Assembly: GCF_002224245.2 (NCBI RefSeq)
Contig: NZ_NKHK02000005.1
Location: forward strand, 124,001 to 188,000
Source: Moraxella sp. VT-16-12
Lineage (GTDB): Bacteria; Pseudomonadota; Gammaproteobacteria; Pseudomonadales; Moraxellaceae
Direction of reading: 5' to 3'
DNA: 64,000 nucleotides
Position numbers and translations under genes: made by a program. Below are positions 56,579 to 62,119 of the stretch, piece by piece. Below the pieces are notes generated by a model. The model worked only from the letters and a program-made list of their open reading frames with translations. It was not told where the DNA came from and did not search any database. Position 1 is the first letter of the stretch. Every line of letters starts with the position of its first letter.

Positions 56579-57574
56579 TTATTCAAACCGCCAACCATCT
56601 TTGAGCTTATCACCCACCGCAATCTGCTCGGCAGTTAATGGCTTACCGCCTGCCCATTGCATTTTTGTGATATTTATCAAATGCTTATTGCCATTTTCAT
56701 CAGCACCACACGACACCAAAATCGCCTTACGCCCCACACTAATCACTTTACCTGCCGTCTCGGTGGTGGTTTGTTCGGACTTAATCGGCAAACACTCCAA
56801 AATTTTAATACGTTCGCCATTTAATAGCGTATAAGCATTTAAGGCACAGATTTGGCGGTTGATGGCGTGAGCCTGTTGTTGCCAATCTATCAAACCTTCA
56901 TCTGTGGTGATTTTTTGGGCATAATTGGCAAGGCTGTCGTCTTGTTTTTTGGCTTTGACTTGATAATCAGATAGGTTGGATAGCACTTCAACCATCGCCT
57001 GTCCGCCAAGCTCAGCAAGTTTGTCATGCAGTGTTTGGGTGGTGTCAGTATCAGCAATCTCACAGCTTGTTTTATAAAGCATATCGCCCGTATCTAGCCC
57101 TTGTGCCATCTGCATGATGGTAATGCCTGTGTGGCTATCACCTGCCAAAATCGCTCGCTGAATGGGTGCTGCCCCCCGCCAACGTGGGAGCAATGAAGCG
57201 TGAATATTTAAGCAGCCCAGCCTTGGTGTATTTAGCACTCCAAGCGGTAAAATCAGCCCATAAGCTGCCACAATCATCACATCAGGGCGATAATTTGCCA
57301 AAGTTTCACGTGAAACACGTCCGCTTTCATGCTCATTTTCAAATTTTAGGCTAAAACTGGTCGGCTGCTCTACAGGGATATGGTGAGCAAGAGCAAGCTC
57401 TTTGACGGGGCTTGCAGTGAGTTTTTGCCCCCGTCCTGCCTTGCGGTCTGGCTGAGTATAAACTGCTACGATATTGATGTTTAGGGCGGTTTGATGGTCA
57501 ATCAAGGCTTGTAAGGCGGTGGCGGCAAACTGGGGTGTGCCAGCAAAAACAACATTTAAAGGTGGTTTATTCAT
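56579..57574 (-). CDS. fmt: Methionyl-tRNA formyltransferase
   Basis: Fmt formylates initiator Met-tRNA. The N-terminal VVFAGTPQFAATALQALI, the catalytic HASLLPRWRGAAPIQRAIL region (conserved Asn-His-Asp set), GDSHTGITIMQM and a C-terminal anticodon-side domain are present. 331 residues. A def gene, often upstream, is not here; a decayed gene and ribE precede it. Its coding sequence contains a parS-like palindrome. Confidence 0.95.
   Translation of the reverse strand: MNKPPLNVVFAGTPQFAATALQALIDHQTALNINIVAVYTQPDRKAGRGQKLTASPVKELALAHHIPVEQPTSFSLKFENEHESGRVSRETLANYRPDVMIVAAYGLILPLGVLNTPRLGCLNIHASLLPRWRGAAPIQRAILAGDSHTGITIMQMAQGLDTGDMLYKTSCEIADTDTTQTLHDKLAELGGQAMVEVLSNLSDYQVKAKKQDDSLANYAQKITTDEGLIDWQQQAHAINRQICALNAYTLLNGERIKILECLPIKSEQTTTETAGKVISVGRKAILVSCGADENGNKHLINITKMQWAGGKPLTAEQIAVGDKLKDGWRFE
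57302..57317. promoter_or_regulatory. parS-like ParB-binding site 1 (inside fmt)
   Basis: AGTTTCACGTGAAACA matches 15 of 16 positions of the parS consensus TGTTTCACGTGAAACA and is a 14-base perfect palindrome. Confidence 0.7.
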
Positions 57575-57698
57575 AACTTCTCACAAAGGTCAATCAAGTG
57601 TTTTAGTGTCTTGGTTCATATCGCATCAAGTAAATCCATCAAAGCCGTGCATTTATCAAAACACAAATCACGTTGAACATCATTGGTTGTTTGTTTGG

Positions 57699-58075
57699 TC
57701 ATCGGTTGGCGACTGTGGCAGTTTTATACTTTGGCTTTTCAAGCTGACAGATATGCACCTGTTTTTGCTGTTTTTTGGCATAATCAATGGTGTATTTACA
57801 CTCATAGATTTACCTTCCCAAAACACAATCAGAACATCGGCAGTATCCACAATCAGCCAATTACAAAAAAGCAGTAGCACGCCCATGACGTTGATAATCA
57901 GGCTTCAAAATCATCTTTTGTAAATCATACTCATCAGCAAAATACTTAGCGAGACTGTCTACTCCTTTTACACCACGCACCATTGTATGCAGTGCGGATG
58001 TCAATCAGCTCATGGGATTTTTACAACAAAACGCATAATCACAAAACCACGAAAGCCAATAATAGCAAGTCCCAT
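57699..58075 (-). pseudogene. Decayed SLOG-family (DUF2493, cpYpsA-related) gene
   Basis: No single frame is open, but fragments in several minus-strand frames line up with the family in order. They are LAIIGFRGF, then CDYAF (after a frame change), ELIDIRTA, VRGVKGVDSLAKYFADEYDL with KPDYQRHGRATAF, then NWLIVDTADVLIVFWEGKS, and IDYAKKQQKQVHICQLEKPKY. At least four frame changes separate them. The total of about 125 codons matches an intact member (Rossmann-like nucleotide-binding fold). It starts 13 bases after the ribE stop. The original function is unknown. Confidence 0.75.
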
Positions 58076-58087
58076 CACCAACCAAAT

Positions 58088-58753
58088 TTAACGCCCAAAC
58101 CCACTTCTCACAAGTAACTCTTCGGTAATATTGCTCTGTGGTGTGCTACCGCCCTTCGCCCCAATCAATCTCTCCAAATACCGTGCCACCAAGTCCACTT
58201 CTATATTAACACTTCGCCCGACCAACCAGTGGCGAGCAATGTTGGTCATGTCAGCCGTGTGCGGAATGATATTTAGGCAAACAATATGCTCAGATGGCTT
58301 AATGCGATTGGTCGTCAAACTAATCCCATCAACCGTGATAGAACCTTTATCCGCCGTATATTTCATCAGCTCAGGCGGTATGGCAACTTCTATATAGACC
58401 GAGCGGGCGTCTTTGGCAATTTTGGCGATTTTGCCCACACCATCCACATGACCTGCCACGATATGACCACCAAAGCGAGTGGTGGGCAACATGGCTTTTT
58501 CTAGGTTTAGTGTGTCGCCCACTTTCCATGCGTTTAGGGCGGTGATGGATAATGTTTCACGTGAAACATCAACGGCATAGTTGTTGCCATCAAGAGCCAC
58601 CACCGTCAAACAAATGCCATTGGATGCAATAGAATCGCCCAATTTCACATCGCTAAAATCTAGCTTTGGTGCGTTGATGGTCAGCCTAACATCACCCCCT
58701 ATGGGCGAAATGGCGGTGAGTGTGCCTGTGGTCTCTATAATACCTGTGAACAT
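58088..58753 (-). CDS. ribE: Riboflavin synthase alpha chain
   Basis: It makes riboflavin from two 6,7-dimethyl-8-ribityllumazine molecules. The 221-residue protein has two homologous barrels: MFTGIIETTGTL then SIASNGICLTVV, and GGHIVAGHVDGVGKI then SITVDGISLTTN. It contains a perfect parS-like site (58553-58568). No FMN riboswitch was seen upstream. Confidence 0.95.
   Translation of the reverse strand: MFTGIIETTGTLTAISPIGGDVRLTINAPKLDFSDVKLGDSIASNGICLTVVALDGNNYAVDVSRETLSITALNAWKVGDTLNLEKAMLPTTRFGGHIVAGHVDGVGKIAKIAKDARSVYIEVAIPPELMKYTADKGSITVDGISLTTNRIKPSEHIVCLNIIPHTADMTNIARHWLVGRSVNIEVDLVARYLERLIGAKGGSTPQSNITEELLVRSGFGR
58553..58568. promoter_or_regulatory. parS site 2 (inside ribE), perfect match
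   Basis: TGTTTCACGTGAAACA matches the ParB-binding consensus at all 16 positions. Confidence 0.85.
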
Positions 58754-58922
58754 AATTTTCTCTACAAATTTATTTTATTAAAAATAAATCATCTTAACAC
58801 AAATCATTTTATAAATCTTAGTGTCGCTCATATCTGCCGCATAAAACCTGATCTGGTTGTGGATAACTTTTTATACGTCTTATCATCATCGCACGCCAAC
58901 CAACTTATCCACAGCCTGTCTA

Positions 58923-58938
58923 TGTTTCATGTGAAACT
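58923..58938. promoter_or_regulatory. parS-like site 3
   Basis: TGTTTCATGTGAAACT matches 14 of 16 parS positions, in the ribE-ribD gap between two DnaA boxes. Confidence 0.6.
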
Positions 58939-59045
58939 TTTATTCACAAACTGTTTTTACATAAAACGCACACAATGTAAGGTCAGCAGAGGTGTTTTTG
59001 TTTTGTAGCACAAAGCATTTGATATGAATACAAAAAGTTTTCCAC

Positions 59046-59061
59046 AGTTTCATATGAAACA
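59046..59061. promoter_or_regulatory. parS-like site 4, degenerate
   Basis: AGTTTCATATGAAACA keeps the palindrome but the central CG is TA (13 of 16), adjoining a DnaA-box match. Confidence 0.45.
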
Positions 59062-59090
59062 TATCAAGCAAACTTTTGGTGCATGAGATA

Positions 59091-60203
59091 TCATGATTGG
59101 GTTGTGGATAACTTATCATGTCGTTTCACAAATACCAGTTTAATATCATCGCCCAATCTTTCCACATTGGTAAGCGTAAAATCCAATTTGTCAGACAATC
59201 TGTCAATTTGTCCCAAAAACATTGGGCGAGCAGTAGCACCAAGCAGACAAGGGGCTTGATACACCACCAATTCATCAATCAACCCTTGTTCCAAAAAAGC
59301 CGTTGTCAATGTCGCCCCTGCTTCTACCAATACATCATAACATTGATACTCTGCCACCAAAGTTTTTAGCAAAGACACCAAATCATCTCGCCAAATTAAG
59401 CCATCAGAGTTTTGAAATACAACATAATCATCATCAGTATCTAGGCGATGACTTCTGTCTAGCACCACGATGTTTGGCTGGGGTATGGCGGTTTTGCCAA
59501 TAGGCAAATCCACATCAGCCAAACGCACGTTTAATTTGGGGTTGTCAGCAATAATCGTGCTAGAGCCTGTGATGATTGCCCCACTTATCGCACGCAAATA
59601 CTGTACATCTGTACGTGCCATCTGCCCTGTTATCCATTTGGATTCACCACTTGACATGGCAATACGCCCATCAAGGCTGATACCCATTTTTAGACGCACA
59701 TAAGGCAAGCCTGTTGCCATCGCTTTTAAAAAACCTGCATTTAATGCCCGTGCCCGCTTTTCACGCACACCAAGCGTTACCATAATCCCTGCGTTTAACA
59801 GTTTGATAATACCTTGTCCTGCCACTTGTGGATTGGGGTCAGCACAAGCAATCACCACACGCCCCACACGCTCTTTAATCAACATATCCACACAAGGGGG
59901 CGTGCGACCTGTATGACTACACGGTTCAAGCGTTACATAAACACTCGCTCCTGTGATGTCTATCCCTTGCTCTTTGACGTGGTTGGTGGCAAACACTTCG
60001 GCATGGGGATAGCCTGCCTTAGGGTGAAAGCCTTTGCCAATAATGACATCATCTTTGACAATCACACAGCCCACACAAGGGTTGGGACGGGTGGTCAATC
60101 GCCCTTTGCTGGCTTCATCTAGTGCCAAGGTCATATAAAATTCATCGTTTGGCAAACTTGGGCTTAGCTGACCGTACACTTCATCTGATAAAAATTGGGT
60201 CAT
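59091..60203 (-). CDS. ribD: Bifunctional riboflavin biosynthesis deaminase/reductase RibD
   Basis: RibD has a deaminase half (zinc residues in the HAEV and PCSHTGRTPPC motifs) and a reductase half from about residue 155 (YVRLKMGISLDGRIAMSSGESKWI). It performs the second and third steps of riboflavin synthesis. The length of 370 residues is typical. Its last codons contain a DnaA box. nrdR lies 3 bases upstream. Confidence 0.94.
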   Translation of the reverse strand: MTQFLSDEVYGQLSPSLPNDEFYMTLALDEASKGRLTTRPNPCVGCVIVKDDVIIGKGFHPKAGYPHAEVFATNHVKEQGIDITGASVYVTLEPCSHTGRTPPCVDMLIKERVGRVVIACADPNPQVAGQGIIKLLNAGIMVTLGVREKRARALNAGFLKAMATGLPYVRLKMGISLDGRIAMSSGESKWITGQMARTDVQYLRAISGAIITGSSTIIADNPKLNVRLADVDLPIGKTAIPQPNIVVLDRSHRLDTDDDYVVFQNSDGLIWRDDLVSLLKTLVAEYQCYDVLVEAGATLTTAFLEQGLIDELVVYQAPCLLGATARPMFLGQIDRLSDKLDFTLTNVERLGDDIKLVFVKRHDKLSTTQS

Positions 60204-60206
60204 GAC

Positions 60207-60698
60207 TTACTCACTTTTACCGTCATCAACTTTGTGTTTGTCATCAAGTCTGGGGGTAAAATTTTCAAGCTCCGCCTTAAAAGCTTCTATATCCTGAAAA
60301 TCCCGATACACACTGGCAAAACGCACATAAGCCACATCATCTATCGCTTTTAACTCACCCATGACAATCTCGCCCAAAGTACGGCTAGACACTTCTCGCT
60401 CACCAGTTTGACGAAGTCGCTGTTCAATGCGATGTACGATGGCATCAATCTCATCAATGCTGACAGGGCGTTTTTGTAGGGGCAATGCCATAGAGCGACG
60501 AAGTTTATTATAATCATAAGGTTCACGCAAGCCATTACTTTTGATGATACGTGGCATGACCACCTCCATCACTTCAAAAGTGGTAAAACGCTCACCGCAT
60601 TCGGTACATTGGCGACGGCGACGAACCTGCGACCCTTCGGCAGCAAGACGTGAATCAATCACTTTGGTATCAACAGCACCACAAAACGGACAATACAT
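60207..60698 (-). CDS. nrdR: Transcriptional repressor NrdR
   Basis: NrdR represses ribonucleotide reductase genes in response to dATP. The start [19 protein letters not shown] has the first half of the zinc ribbon, and [13 protein letters not shown] the second. The ATP-cone domain follows to about residue 140. The ATG at 60698 with an AGGGG site gives 163 residues; an ATG 8 codons earlier is less likely. The nrdR-ribD pair is conserved. Confidence 0.95.
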
Positions 60699-60706
60699 AT
60701 CTGCCC

Positions 60707-62119
60707 CTATTTTCCAATACAAAAACTGCTAAAAATCCGCCCCAACAACTCATCACTACTCATCTGCCCCGTCATCTCACCAAGTGCCTGCTGTGATAGC
60801 CTTAAACTCTCTGCCACCAGCTCGCCCGCCTGATAAACAGTCAATTGTATATAAGCATCATGAGCATGAGACTTAGCACGTTTTAGAGCATCAAGATGAC
60901 GTGTACGAGCAATCAGGCTGTTTTCTGGGGGGTGAAAACCCACTTTGTTTTTTAGCACCGCCACCAATTTATCAATACCTTGACCTGTTTGACAAGACAC
61001 ATTGACATGAGCGGATGGTACATTATCCATCAAATGAGCTGATGTTTCATGTGAAACATCAGGTAGCAAATCGCTTTTATTGGCAACCATGACAAGTTTC
61101 TGCTCAAAACTTTCTTGCCCCAGCTCTGCAATGACATCAAAAAACAGCGCTTTTGCCAACTCAAAAGGGGCATTTTCTTTGCTAACATCATAAACAAACA
61201 ATAACACATCTGCCTGCCTGACCGCCATTTTGGCTCGGTCTATGCCGATTTTTTCCACCTTATCGTGCGTGTCTCTAAGTCCTGCTGTGTCGGTCAAATG
61301 CACCGTCAAACCATCAAGCACCAACATCTCTGACAGCGTGTCTCGGGTCGTCCCTGCCACGTCAGTTACGATGGCGCGCTCCACGCCTGCAAGGCGATTT
61401 AACAAACTTGATTTGCCCGCATTGGGCTTGCCTGCCAACACCACTTGCACACCATCTCTTAAAAGCTGACCCTGTTTGGCATTGTTTAAAATACCATCAA
61501 TTTGCTGTAAGATACTGCTGATTTTTTGCTCAATCACCCCATCTGATAAAAATTCCACGTCCTCTTCATCACTAAAATCAATGCTGGCTTCCACGTACAG
61601 ACGAAGGTTGATAATTTTTTCATTTAAGTCATTGATTTTATTTGAAAATTCACCAGATAAAGAACGAATCGCACCTCTTGCCTGAGCCATGCTTGTTGCA
61701 CTGATGGCGTCCGCGATTGCCTCAGCTTGCAGTAAGTCAATTTTATCATTTTCAAAGGCACGCATGGAAAACTCGCCAGCGGTCGCCTGCCTTGCTCCAA
61801 GCTCAAAACAACGAGCCAAGAGCATATTTTGTAGCACCATGCCGCCATGCCCTTGTAGCTCTACCACATCCTCGCCTGTAAAAGAATGCGGGGCATTAAA
61901 ATAAATCACCACCCCTTCATCAATCACGGTCTCTTTATCATCTTTAAATGTGGCAAAATGGGCGTGGCGTGGTATCAGTTTGGACTTACCCGTGATGGCA
62001 CAGCCAATCTGATAGGCGGTGCGACCTGACAGGCGAATGATGCCCACGCCACCTTGACCGATAGGGCTGGCGATGGCGGCAATGGTGGGTTGTTGGTATT
62101 TTGACATGACATGAGACAT
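60707..62119 (-). CDS. mnmE: tRNA modification GTPase MnmE
   Basis: MnmE with MnmG makes the 5-carboxymethylaminomethyl modification at U34 of tRNAs. A formyl-THF-binding domain is N-terminal, then a helical domain and an inserted G domain with [14 protein letters not shown] (G1), DVAGTTRDT (G2), DTAGLR (G3) and NKSD (G4). The C-terminus ends CIGK, carrying the conserved CxGK motif. 470 residues, or 466 from an internal ATG at 62107. It contains a parS-like palindrome. Confidence 0.96.
61043..61058. promoter_or_regulatory. parS-like site 5 (inside mnmE)
   Basis: TGTTTCATGTGAAACA matches 15 of 16 positions of parS. Confidence 0.65.

What the first reader, a model, noticed from the sequence alone, without database searches (positions are those of the whole stretch)
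58754..59111. Origin-like DnaA-box cluster between ribE and ribD
Three exact TTATCCACA matches (58858-58866 minus, 58905-58913 plus, 59103-59111 minus), TTATTCACA and TTTTCCACA occur in 254 bases, next to an AT-rich stretch (58754-58822) that could unwind. Two parS-like palindromes are interleaved. Such density in a protein-free gap is the classic layout of oriC. The mnmE-yidC block alongside is usually origin-adjacent. However, in Pseudomonas-type genomes oriC sits between rpmH and dnaA, and mnmE and yidC are transcribed away from it. Here they are transcribed leftward, so a canonical oriC could lie to the right, making this a secondary DnaA-titration or regulatory site.
Basis: partly seen in the sequence, partly recalled or inferred. 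Interest (0 to 1): 0.8.

Follow-up and report, generated by a model that had tools for sequence, protein, structure and literature searches.

The report
Replication-initiator sites fused to chromosome centromere
About 6 kb from the real replication origin, Moraxella, Psychrobacter and one related genus keep a small DNA element in which binding sites for the replication starter DnaA are interlocked with likely binding sites for the chromosome-segregation protein ParB, which may be a switch linking copying of the chromosome to its partition.

Summary
They are not the origin: the canonical oriC (seven exact DnaA boxes upstream of dnaA) lies just right of the window at extended coordinate 65086-65292, the GC-skew minimum is near it (64382), and genes between the clusters have leading-strand skew. 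The ribE-ribD cluster is still a real, conserved element. In 51 ribE-ribD gaps from three genera there are 154 exact boxes (0.47 expected). Spacer sequence is not conserved, but spacing is: box1-box2 is 47-48 or 57-59 bp in 41 of 51 gaps, never 49-56; box3-box4 is 65 bp in 15 of 20 Moraxella. Boxes are interleaved with 95 parS-like palindromes (0.1 expected); in 22 of 51 gaps one abuts a box. All five strict parS sites of the window genome lie within 3.8 kb here, so this looks like the centromere. Relatives, though not the window's own subclade, carry an exact IHF consensus between box2 and box3 (19 of 36 spacers, 1.27 expected); the window's subclade has parS-like sites there instead. I propose a DnaA-regulating site under ParB control, working like Vibrio cholerae rctA/parS2-B combined with E. 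coli datA. Binding and function are untested. My literature searches found no description of it.

The parts
58858..58866 (-). DnaA box 1, TTATCCACA
   Evidence: inverted partner of box 2 at 47 bp; pair kept in 41 of 51 gaps
58905..58913 (+). DnaA box 2, TTATCCACA
58924..58937 (.). parS-like palindrome GTTTCATGTGAAAC, 10 bp after box 2 and 2 bp before TTATTCACA
   Evidence: same 10-bp offset from box 2 in G002, G005, G008, G011, G019
58940..58948 (+). DnaA box-like TTATTCACA
59038..59046 (+). DnaA box 3, TTTTCCACA
   Evidence: 65 bp from box 4, as in 15 of 20 Moraxella gaps
59047..59060 (.). parS-like palindrome GTTTCATATGAAAC, directly abutting box 3
   Evidence: abutting arrangement in 22 of 51 gaps
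59103..59111 (-). DnaA box 4, TTATCCACA, inside the 3' end of ribD
58754..58822 (.). AT-rich stretch (85.5% AT) between ribE and box 1; conservation as an unwinding element not shown
58554..58567 (.). parS GTTTCACGTGAAAC inside ribE (codons VSRET)
   Evidence: strict parS here in 9 of 20 Moraxella, 19 of 25 g9, 5 of 6 g7, 0 of 7 other loci
57303..57316 (.). parS GTTTCACGTGAAAC inside fmt
61044..61057 (.). parS-like GTTTCATGTGAAAC inside mnmE
58088..58753 (-). ribE, riboflavin synthase (left neighbour)
   Evidence: NF006767, 230.8 bits, above cut-off
59091..60203 (-). ribD (right neighbour)
   Evidence: TIGR00326, 336.6 bits, above cut-off

Best explanation
It is a composite DnaA/ParB control element in the centromere (parS cluster), about 6 kb from oriC; it is not the origin. 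Two inverted pairs of DnaA boxes (box1/box2 and box3/box4) at fixed spacing are joined by a spacer that carries an IHF consensus in many relatives and parS-like sites in the window's own subclade. Folding of that joint by IHF or ParB would bring the DnaA molecules of the two halves together. Most likely mechanism: an origin-proximal site that binds and restrains DnaA (sink, perhaps also inactivation as at datA), doubled as soon as a fork leaves oriC, and tuned by ParB, which loads at parS palindromes abutting the boxes and would compete with or reshape bound DnaA. Shown: conserved sites, fixed spacing, fusion to parS, IHF consensus in relatives, centromere location, oriC elsewhere. Inferred: binding by DnaA, ParB and IHF, competition, and the effect on initiation.
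For: 154 exact boxes in 51 gaps against 0.47 expected from dinucleotide shuffles. Box1-box2 spacing 47/48 or 57-59 bp in 41 of 51 gaps with none at 49-56, box3-box4 65 bp in 15 of 20 Moraxella, while the DNA between is unconserved. Box2-box3 distances in 17 Moraxella gaps (99, 112/113, 123, 133/134) step by about a helical turn. 95 parS-like sites against 0.1 expected (mononucleotide shuffles), abutting a box in 22 of 51 gaps. An exact IHF consensus lies in 19 of 36 box2-box3 spacers against 1.27 expected, at +48 to +60 from box2 in 7 of 10 Moraxella of the 57-60-bp class and +55 to +58 in 11 of 24 g9. All five strict parS sites of the genome lie at window 57303-61057, and the genome encodes a ParB. 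A separate oriC lies at dnaA. The fused motif was in 0 of 368 other gammaproteobacterial genomes drawn. Precedents: V. cholerae rctA/parS2-B (PMC3141006 abstract, PMC3688505 passages), DnaA at Caulobacter parS (PMC6399470 and PMC9945499 passages), E. coli datA (PMC10380432 passages).
Against: No binding or phenotype data. One Moraxella genome (G017) has lost all exact boxes in this gap and two (G009, G021) keep only part, so the element is dispensable or replaceable. Eight of 51 gaps have no parS-like site, abutment is a minority state (22 of 51), and six Moraxella gaps with boxes (L013, L014, L016, L018, L024, L030) have no parS-like site at all, so the DnaA part can stand without an internal parS. 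The window's own gap has no exact IHF consensus, and IHF is not enriched inside the two inverted pairs. Genes for IHF were not searched. The direction of any ParB-DnaA effect is a guess.
Confidence: 0.5

Rival explanations
1. Plain datA-like or DARS-like DnaA titration, inactivation or reactivation site; the parS sites are merely neighbours in the centromere.
For: DnaA boxes flank an exact IHF consensus at fixed distance in many relatives, as at E. coli datA, where box spacing to the IHF site matters (PMC10380432 and PMC4585315 passages); my search also finds the IHF site between the boxes of E. coli datA. Six Moraxella gaps have boxes without parS. DnaA boxes are enriched near oriC in E. coli (PMC12371093 section 6).
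Against: 0 of 8 gaps of the window's own class have the exact IHF consensus after box 2, while parS-like sites abut boxes far beyond chance.
Confidence: 0.2
2. DnaA-triggered segregation, Caulobacter style: DnaA bound at the centromere licenses ParB-parS movement. The target of regulation is segregation, not the DnaA pool.
For: In Caulobacter DnaA binds parS directly and promotes its translocation (passages in PMC6399470; PMC9945499). The boxes here are inside a parS cluster.
Against: The paired geometry, four strong boxes and an IHF site in relatives suit a DnaA-regulating assembly more than a simple mark. No cell-biology data for these genera.
Confidence: 0.15
3. Second or bipartite origin: replication starts here, or this cluster loops to the dnaA-side oriC during initiation.
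For: Box density, a nearby 85.5% AT stretch, an IHF consensus in relatives, and persistence beside oriC in three genera.
Against: Skew minimum at 64382 and leading-type 4-fold skew of the genes between; minima nearer the dnaA cluster in 40 of 41 usable loci. A richer cluster with an AT run sits at dnaA.
Confidence: 0.1
4. Transcriptional control of ribE (and downstream genes) by DnaA or ParB.
For: The element lies upstream of ribE.
Against: Distance from box 1 to the ribE start varies from 17 to 676 bp while box spacings stay fixed. The only Rfam match to E<=1 is far below its gathering score.
Confidence: 0.04
5. Chance cluster or relic without function.
For: Lost in G017 and partial in G009 and G021.
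Against: 0 of 20000 shuffles reach three boxes; at least one exact box in 50 of 51 gaps of three genera, with unconserved spacers.
Confidence: 0.01

Closest known systems
Vibrio cholerae chromosome II rctA / parS2-B
   Same: A parS site next to an initiator-binding site beside the origin; ParB2 and the initiator RctB both bind, and ParB2 relieves the inhibition exerted by rctA (PMC3141006 abstract; PMC3688505 passages).
   Different: Initiator is RctB with 39-mers, not DnaA with 9-mers; secondary chromosome; rctA flanks its origin, whereas here it is the main chromosome and about 6 kb.
Caulobacter crescentus centromere bound by DnaA (Mera et al. 2014; original not held, seen through PMC6399470 and PMC9945499 passages)
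   Same: DnaA binds at the parS centromere near the origin of a single main chromosome.
   Different: Alphaproteobacterium; fixed inverted box pairs and boxes abutting parS are not mentioned in the passages read.
E. coli datA
   Same: Non-coding DnaA-box site with spacing-sensitive boxes flanking an IHF site (PMC10380432, PMC4585315, PMC10950094 passages); relatives of the window have an IHF consensus between two direct boxes, as in the E. coli piece I fetched.
   Different: The window's own subclade lacks the exact IHF consensus and has parS-like sites instead; extra inverted box pairs; different gene context. No parS in datA is known to me (recalled).
Bipartite oriC (Helicobacter pylori; recalled, only its title seen in a reference list)
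   Same: Two DnaA-box clusters flanking genes.
   Different: Here the clusters are about 6 kb apart with at least five reading frames between, and skew points to one of them.

Membership tests
chromosomal replication origin (oriC) | cluster of three or more DnaA boxes | tested here: met
chromosomal replication origin (oriC) | at the GC-skew minimum | tested here: not met
   minimum at 64382, not 58.9 kb (87.7 kb of one contig); nearer the dnaA cluster in 40 of 41 usable loci of 51 (exception L088)
chromosomal replication origin (oriC) | next to dnaA, as usual in this order (recalled) | tested here: not met
   another cluster of seven exact boxes sits there
chromosomal replication origin (oriC) | AT-rich unwinding element | tested here: inconclusive
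   58754-58822 is 85.5% AT; conservation as an unwinding element not shown
chromosomal replication origin (oriC) | autonomous replication | not testable with these tools
   needs a plasmid assay
datA (DnaA-inactivating locus) | IHF site between DnaA boxes | tested here: inconclusive
   exact consensus between box2 and box3 in 19 of 36 spacers (1.27 expected), but 0 of 8 in the window's own class; no enrichment inside the inverted pairs (42 and 26 spacers)
datA (DnaA-inactivating locus) | promotes hydrolysis of DnaA-bound ATP | not testable with these tools
   biochemistry needed
DARS1/DARS2 | core of DnaA boxes I-III | not tested
   core arrangement not compared
chromosomal parABS centromere | parS palindromes clustered near oriC | tested here: met
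   five strict sites at 57303-61057, the only ones in the draft genome; three relaxed ones right of oriC in 87.7 kb
chromosomal parABS centromere | ParB encoded in the genome | tested here: met
   C11:313559-314101, TIGR00180, 169.7 bits
chromosomal parABS centromere | ParB binds these sites | not testable with these tools
   ChIP or gel shift needed
initiator-binding centromere (Caulobacter parS type) | DnaA boxes within the parS region | tested here: met
initiator-binding centromere (Caulobacter parS type) | DnaA binding there starts segregation | not testable with these tools
   cell biology needed
V. cholerae rctA | parS beside an initiator site near the origin | tested here: met
   by sequence only
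V. cholerae rctA | RctB 39-mers and rctB gene | not tested
   not searched; works-like claim only, no membership claimed

The most novel reading that the evidence does not exclude
A DnaA-regulating element of the datA kind whose folding has been handed from IHF to the partition protein. In Moraxella the joint between box2 and box3 holds either an exact IHF consensus (7 gaps) or parS-like sites (11 gaps), never both among the 18 gaps with the box1-box2 pair. In the window's subclade ParB clamps, loading at parS that shares an edge with DnaA boxes, would fold or evict the DnaA complex, so that the state of the centromere directly gates the next initiation on a main chromosome.
Probability: 0.25. 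Interest if true: 0.85.

Novelty: new variant of a known kind. Interest (0 to 1): 0.65.

Why it matters
How bacteria tie the start of replication to segregation is open in most species. Here the two machineries appear to share one small, conserved, easily mutated DNA element on a main chromosome, with natural variants (IHF joint, parS joint, lost) to compare. It also warns origin-prediction programs: a strong DnaA-box cluster 6 kb from dnaA is a centromere element, not oriC.

Tried and rejected
Main origin: rejected on skew and on the second cluster at dnaA. RNA element or riboswitch: only a sub-threshold chance Rfam match. Promoter architecture: one weak consensus promoter against 3.0 expected, and the distance to ribE varies.

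Two early conclusions of mine were wrong and are mended. (a) I first tested IHF only inside the two inverted pairs (no enrichment: 6.93 vs 6.63 and 7.04 vs 6.86 of 9 positions) and took datA-like architecture as refuted. A re-check of the box2-box3 spacer found it enriched. I therefore raised the plain datA-like rival (0.15 to 0.2) and the second-origin rival (0.09 to 0.1) and lowered the Caulobacter-type (0.2 to 0.15) and ribE-control (0.05 to 0.04) rivals. (b) I thought other Moraxellaceae lack parS near oriC; that rested on the strict pattern GTTTCACGTGAAAC. With GTTYCAYRTGRAAC the loci have parS-like sites near oriC, in 11 of 12 on the dnaA side (the twelfth ends before dnaA).

Limits: searches used two forms of the fused motif in one order of sites; hybrid parS forms and the parS-then-box order were not searched in other families. 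One search's draw held one other Moraxellaceae genome (G026) and no Psychrobacter. The form is absent from the window genome too. Species are related, so gap counts are not independent; the 47/48 class is probably one ancestral change. The helical-step test uses distinct values only and ignores the tree: at period 10.5, 54 of 5000 random sets matched box1-box2 in Moraxella, 96 box2-box3, 1794 box3-box4 (no phasing seen), 390 box2-box3 in g9. Skew minima are partly confounded by gene direction; the 4-fold-site test is per strand but from one genome with mechanically called frames. Of 22 genus genomes G007 gave no match to any query and G014's ribE was not found, so 20 gaps were used. For one search, 41 of 51 loci reach oriC and 10 were not usable; an earlier count on 38 gave 37. 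In g7, L090 has no ribD match (600 bp taken) and L091 is rearranged (4.8 kb gap); both were left out of the IHF test.

Full report
Observation. The window is contig C55:124001-188000 of a 2.15-Mb draft in 60 contigs. The genus is Moraxella by inference: the ribD contig of genus member G019 has the same length, 13540 b, as a record titled Moraxella sp.. Three exact boxes in 254 bp is far beyond chance (0 of 20000 shuffles). One correction: the third box lies in the last codons of ribD.

The origin is elsewhere. dnaA is at C55:189505-190827 (397.9 bits). Seven exact boxes lie at C55:189086-189292 just upstream, with a long AT run between them. Cumulative GC skew over 87.7 kb of this contig has its minimum at 64382. 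Four-fold-site skew of the five leftward frames between the clusters (179 G, 176 C) resembles leftward genes further left (1074/1227; Fisher p 0.19) and differs from lagging-strand genes (131/201, p 0.0045; 587/982, p 8e-6). Forks therefore pass these genes leftward from the dnaA side. In 41 of the 51 loci that reach oriC the local minimum is nearer the dnaA cluster in 40; L088 is the exception and 10 loci were not usable.

The element is conserved. I examined the ribE-ribD gap in 51 genomes: 20 Moraxella (g1), 25 g9 (Psychrobacter by inference: G111's contig has the length of the P. lutiphocae record) and 6 g7 (genus unknown). They hold 154 exact boxes against 0.47 expected; 50 of 51 have at least one. 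The inverted pair box1(-)/box2(+) with exact boxes is present in 17 of 20 g1, 24 of 25 g9 and 0 of 6 g7. Its spacing is 47-48 bp in 8 and 57-59 in 33, none at 49-56; G021 has an imperfect pair at 60. In g1, box3(+)/box4(-) is 65 bp in 15 of 20, 62 and 55 in one each, absent in three. The DNA between is not conserved, so the boxes and their distance are what is kept. Box2-box3 distances in 17 g1 gaps are 99, 112/113, 123 and 133/134, again steps of about a helical turn (96 of 5000 random sets as phased at period 10.5). This fits a protein complex needing a defined face of the helix, but related species are not independent.

parS is built in. The strict pattern GTTTCANRTGAAAC occurs five times in the draft genome, all within window 57303-61057: in fmt, in ribE, twice in the gap, and in mnmE. 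Relaxed matches also occur at 68549, 80700 and 81282 in extended coordinates. In the 51 gaps there are 95 parS-like sites (up to 2 mismatches) against 0.1 expected, in 43 gaps; in 22 gaps one directly abuts a DnaA box. In g1 the unit is TTWTCCACA|GTTTCAYRTGRAAC; in g9 it is often parS, 4 bp, TTATACACA, parS, and in G101 this repeats with a 27-bp period. In 4 g7 gaps a parS lies 2 bp before a box. A strict parS is also written into ribE codons VSRET in 9 of 20 g1, 19 of 25 g9, 5 of 6 g7 and 0 of 7 other loci; two of those seven encode VSRE without parS. The genome encodes ParB.

An IHF joint in relatives. Using the consensus WATCAAnnnnTTR (printed in PMC10380432), an exact match lies in the box2-box3 spacer in 19 of 36 spacers against 1.27 expected. 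Within 80 bp after box2 it occurs in 7 of 10 g1 gaps of the 57-60-bp class (at +48/+50 or +60, again about a helical turn apart), in 11 of 24 g9 (+55 to +58, other strand) and in 0 of 8 of the 47/48-bp class, to which the window belongs. Reading together, in the 18 g1 gaps with the pair the box2-box3 spacer has either an exact IHF consensus (7) or parS-like sites (11), never both. In g9 both can occur in one gap. Inside the inverted pairs IHF is not enriched. As a control the same search finds an exact match between the two TTWTNCACA boxes of E. coli datA.

Distribution. In six other Moraxellaceae genera sampled (g15, g2, g10, g13, g5, g11; one genome each) and in Acinetobacter sp. A2 ribE-ribD holds no boxes and was not seen beside yidC or dnaA. 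The element thus goes with the joining of the rib genes to the origin region. One form of the fused or close (0-12 bp) motif was absent from 368 other gammaproteobacterial genomes; a second form was absent from all 145 genomes of an order-level draw, the window genome included. Exact boxes are absent in G017 and partial in G009 and G021.

Mechanism. Shown: paired DnaA boxes with fixed spacing, parS fused to them, an IHF consensus in relatives, centromere location, oriC elsewhere. Inferred: DnaA, ParB and IHF bind. The last base of box 3 falls inside the 16-bp parS (length from the start of the PMC8494293 abstract), so binding of both at once would be tight and competition is likely; ParB would thereby gate an origin-proximal DnaA-restraining site. 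The nearest working precedent is V. cholerae rctA, where ParB2 binding to parS2-B relieves inhibition by an RctB-binding site (PMC3141006 abstract; PMC3688505 passages). In Caulobacter DnaA binds parS and promotes its movement (PMC6399470 passages; PMC9945499 passages; original not held). At E. coli datA, IHF bending is thought to bring DnaA on flanking boxes together and spacing matters (PMC10380432, PMC4585315, PMC10950094 passages). Origin-proximal titration has recent support in E. coli (PMC12371093 abstract and section 6).

Novelty. Literature searches (listings and starts of abstracts seen, open-licence papers only) showed no report of this element in Moraxella or Psychrobacter. Passages of PMC4948915 and PMC7174414 gave nothing on it. 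It is a new variant of a known kind, an initiator-binding centromere.

Verdict. Not an origin, not chance: a conserved composite DnaA/parS element near oriC. That it is a selected DnaA-box/parS element I hold at about 0.93; the specific mechanism, a ParB-tuned DnaA-restraining site, at about 0.5.

Noticed in passing
L104 12375-12479 (G025); L109 6358-6471 in the mnmE-reversed frame (G050); L108 and L110 likewise with two boxes: In another Moraxellaceae genus (g5), and weakly in g12, exact DnaA boxes (six in G025 and G050, two in G040 and G032) are packed inside the mnmE coding sequence 3.6-3.8 kb from oriC; in G025 one frame stays open across them. This looks like a second, independent origin-proximal DnaA cluster written into a gene.
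   Followed up: partly
window 58554-58567, 57303-57316, 61044-61057: parS palindromes are encoded inside ribE (as VSRET), fmt and mnmE, so the centromere seems to constrain codon choice in household genes.
   Followed up: partly
window 57575-58087: About 510 bp between fmt and ribE with no leftward frame of 80 aa or more; contains GTATCCACA at 57843. Possibly decayed sequence.
   Followed up: no
L026 (G017) ribE-ribD gap: This Moraxella has no exact box or parS-like site in the gap but keeps its oriC cluster: a natural knock-out for comparison.
   Followed up: partly
genome G007: A 2.0-Mb single-contig genome of the same genus gave no match for RibD, RibE, DnaA or parS; perhaps withheld or unusual.
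   Followed up: no
L116 18564-18760 (G057): Three exact DnaA boxes in about 200 bp, 6 kb beyond the end of the dnaA match in a g15 genome.
   Followed up: no
L007 15311-15832 (G000:C7): Hda-like fragment (TIGR03420, 139.1 bits on 174 aa, below the whole-protein cut-off of 194.8), suggesting that replication-coupled DnaA inactivation exists alongside.
   Followed up: no
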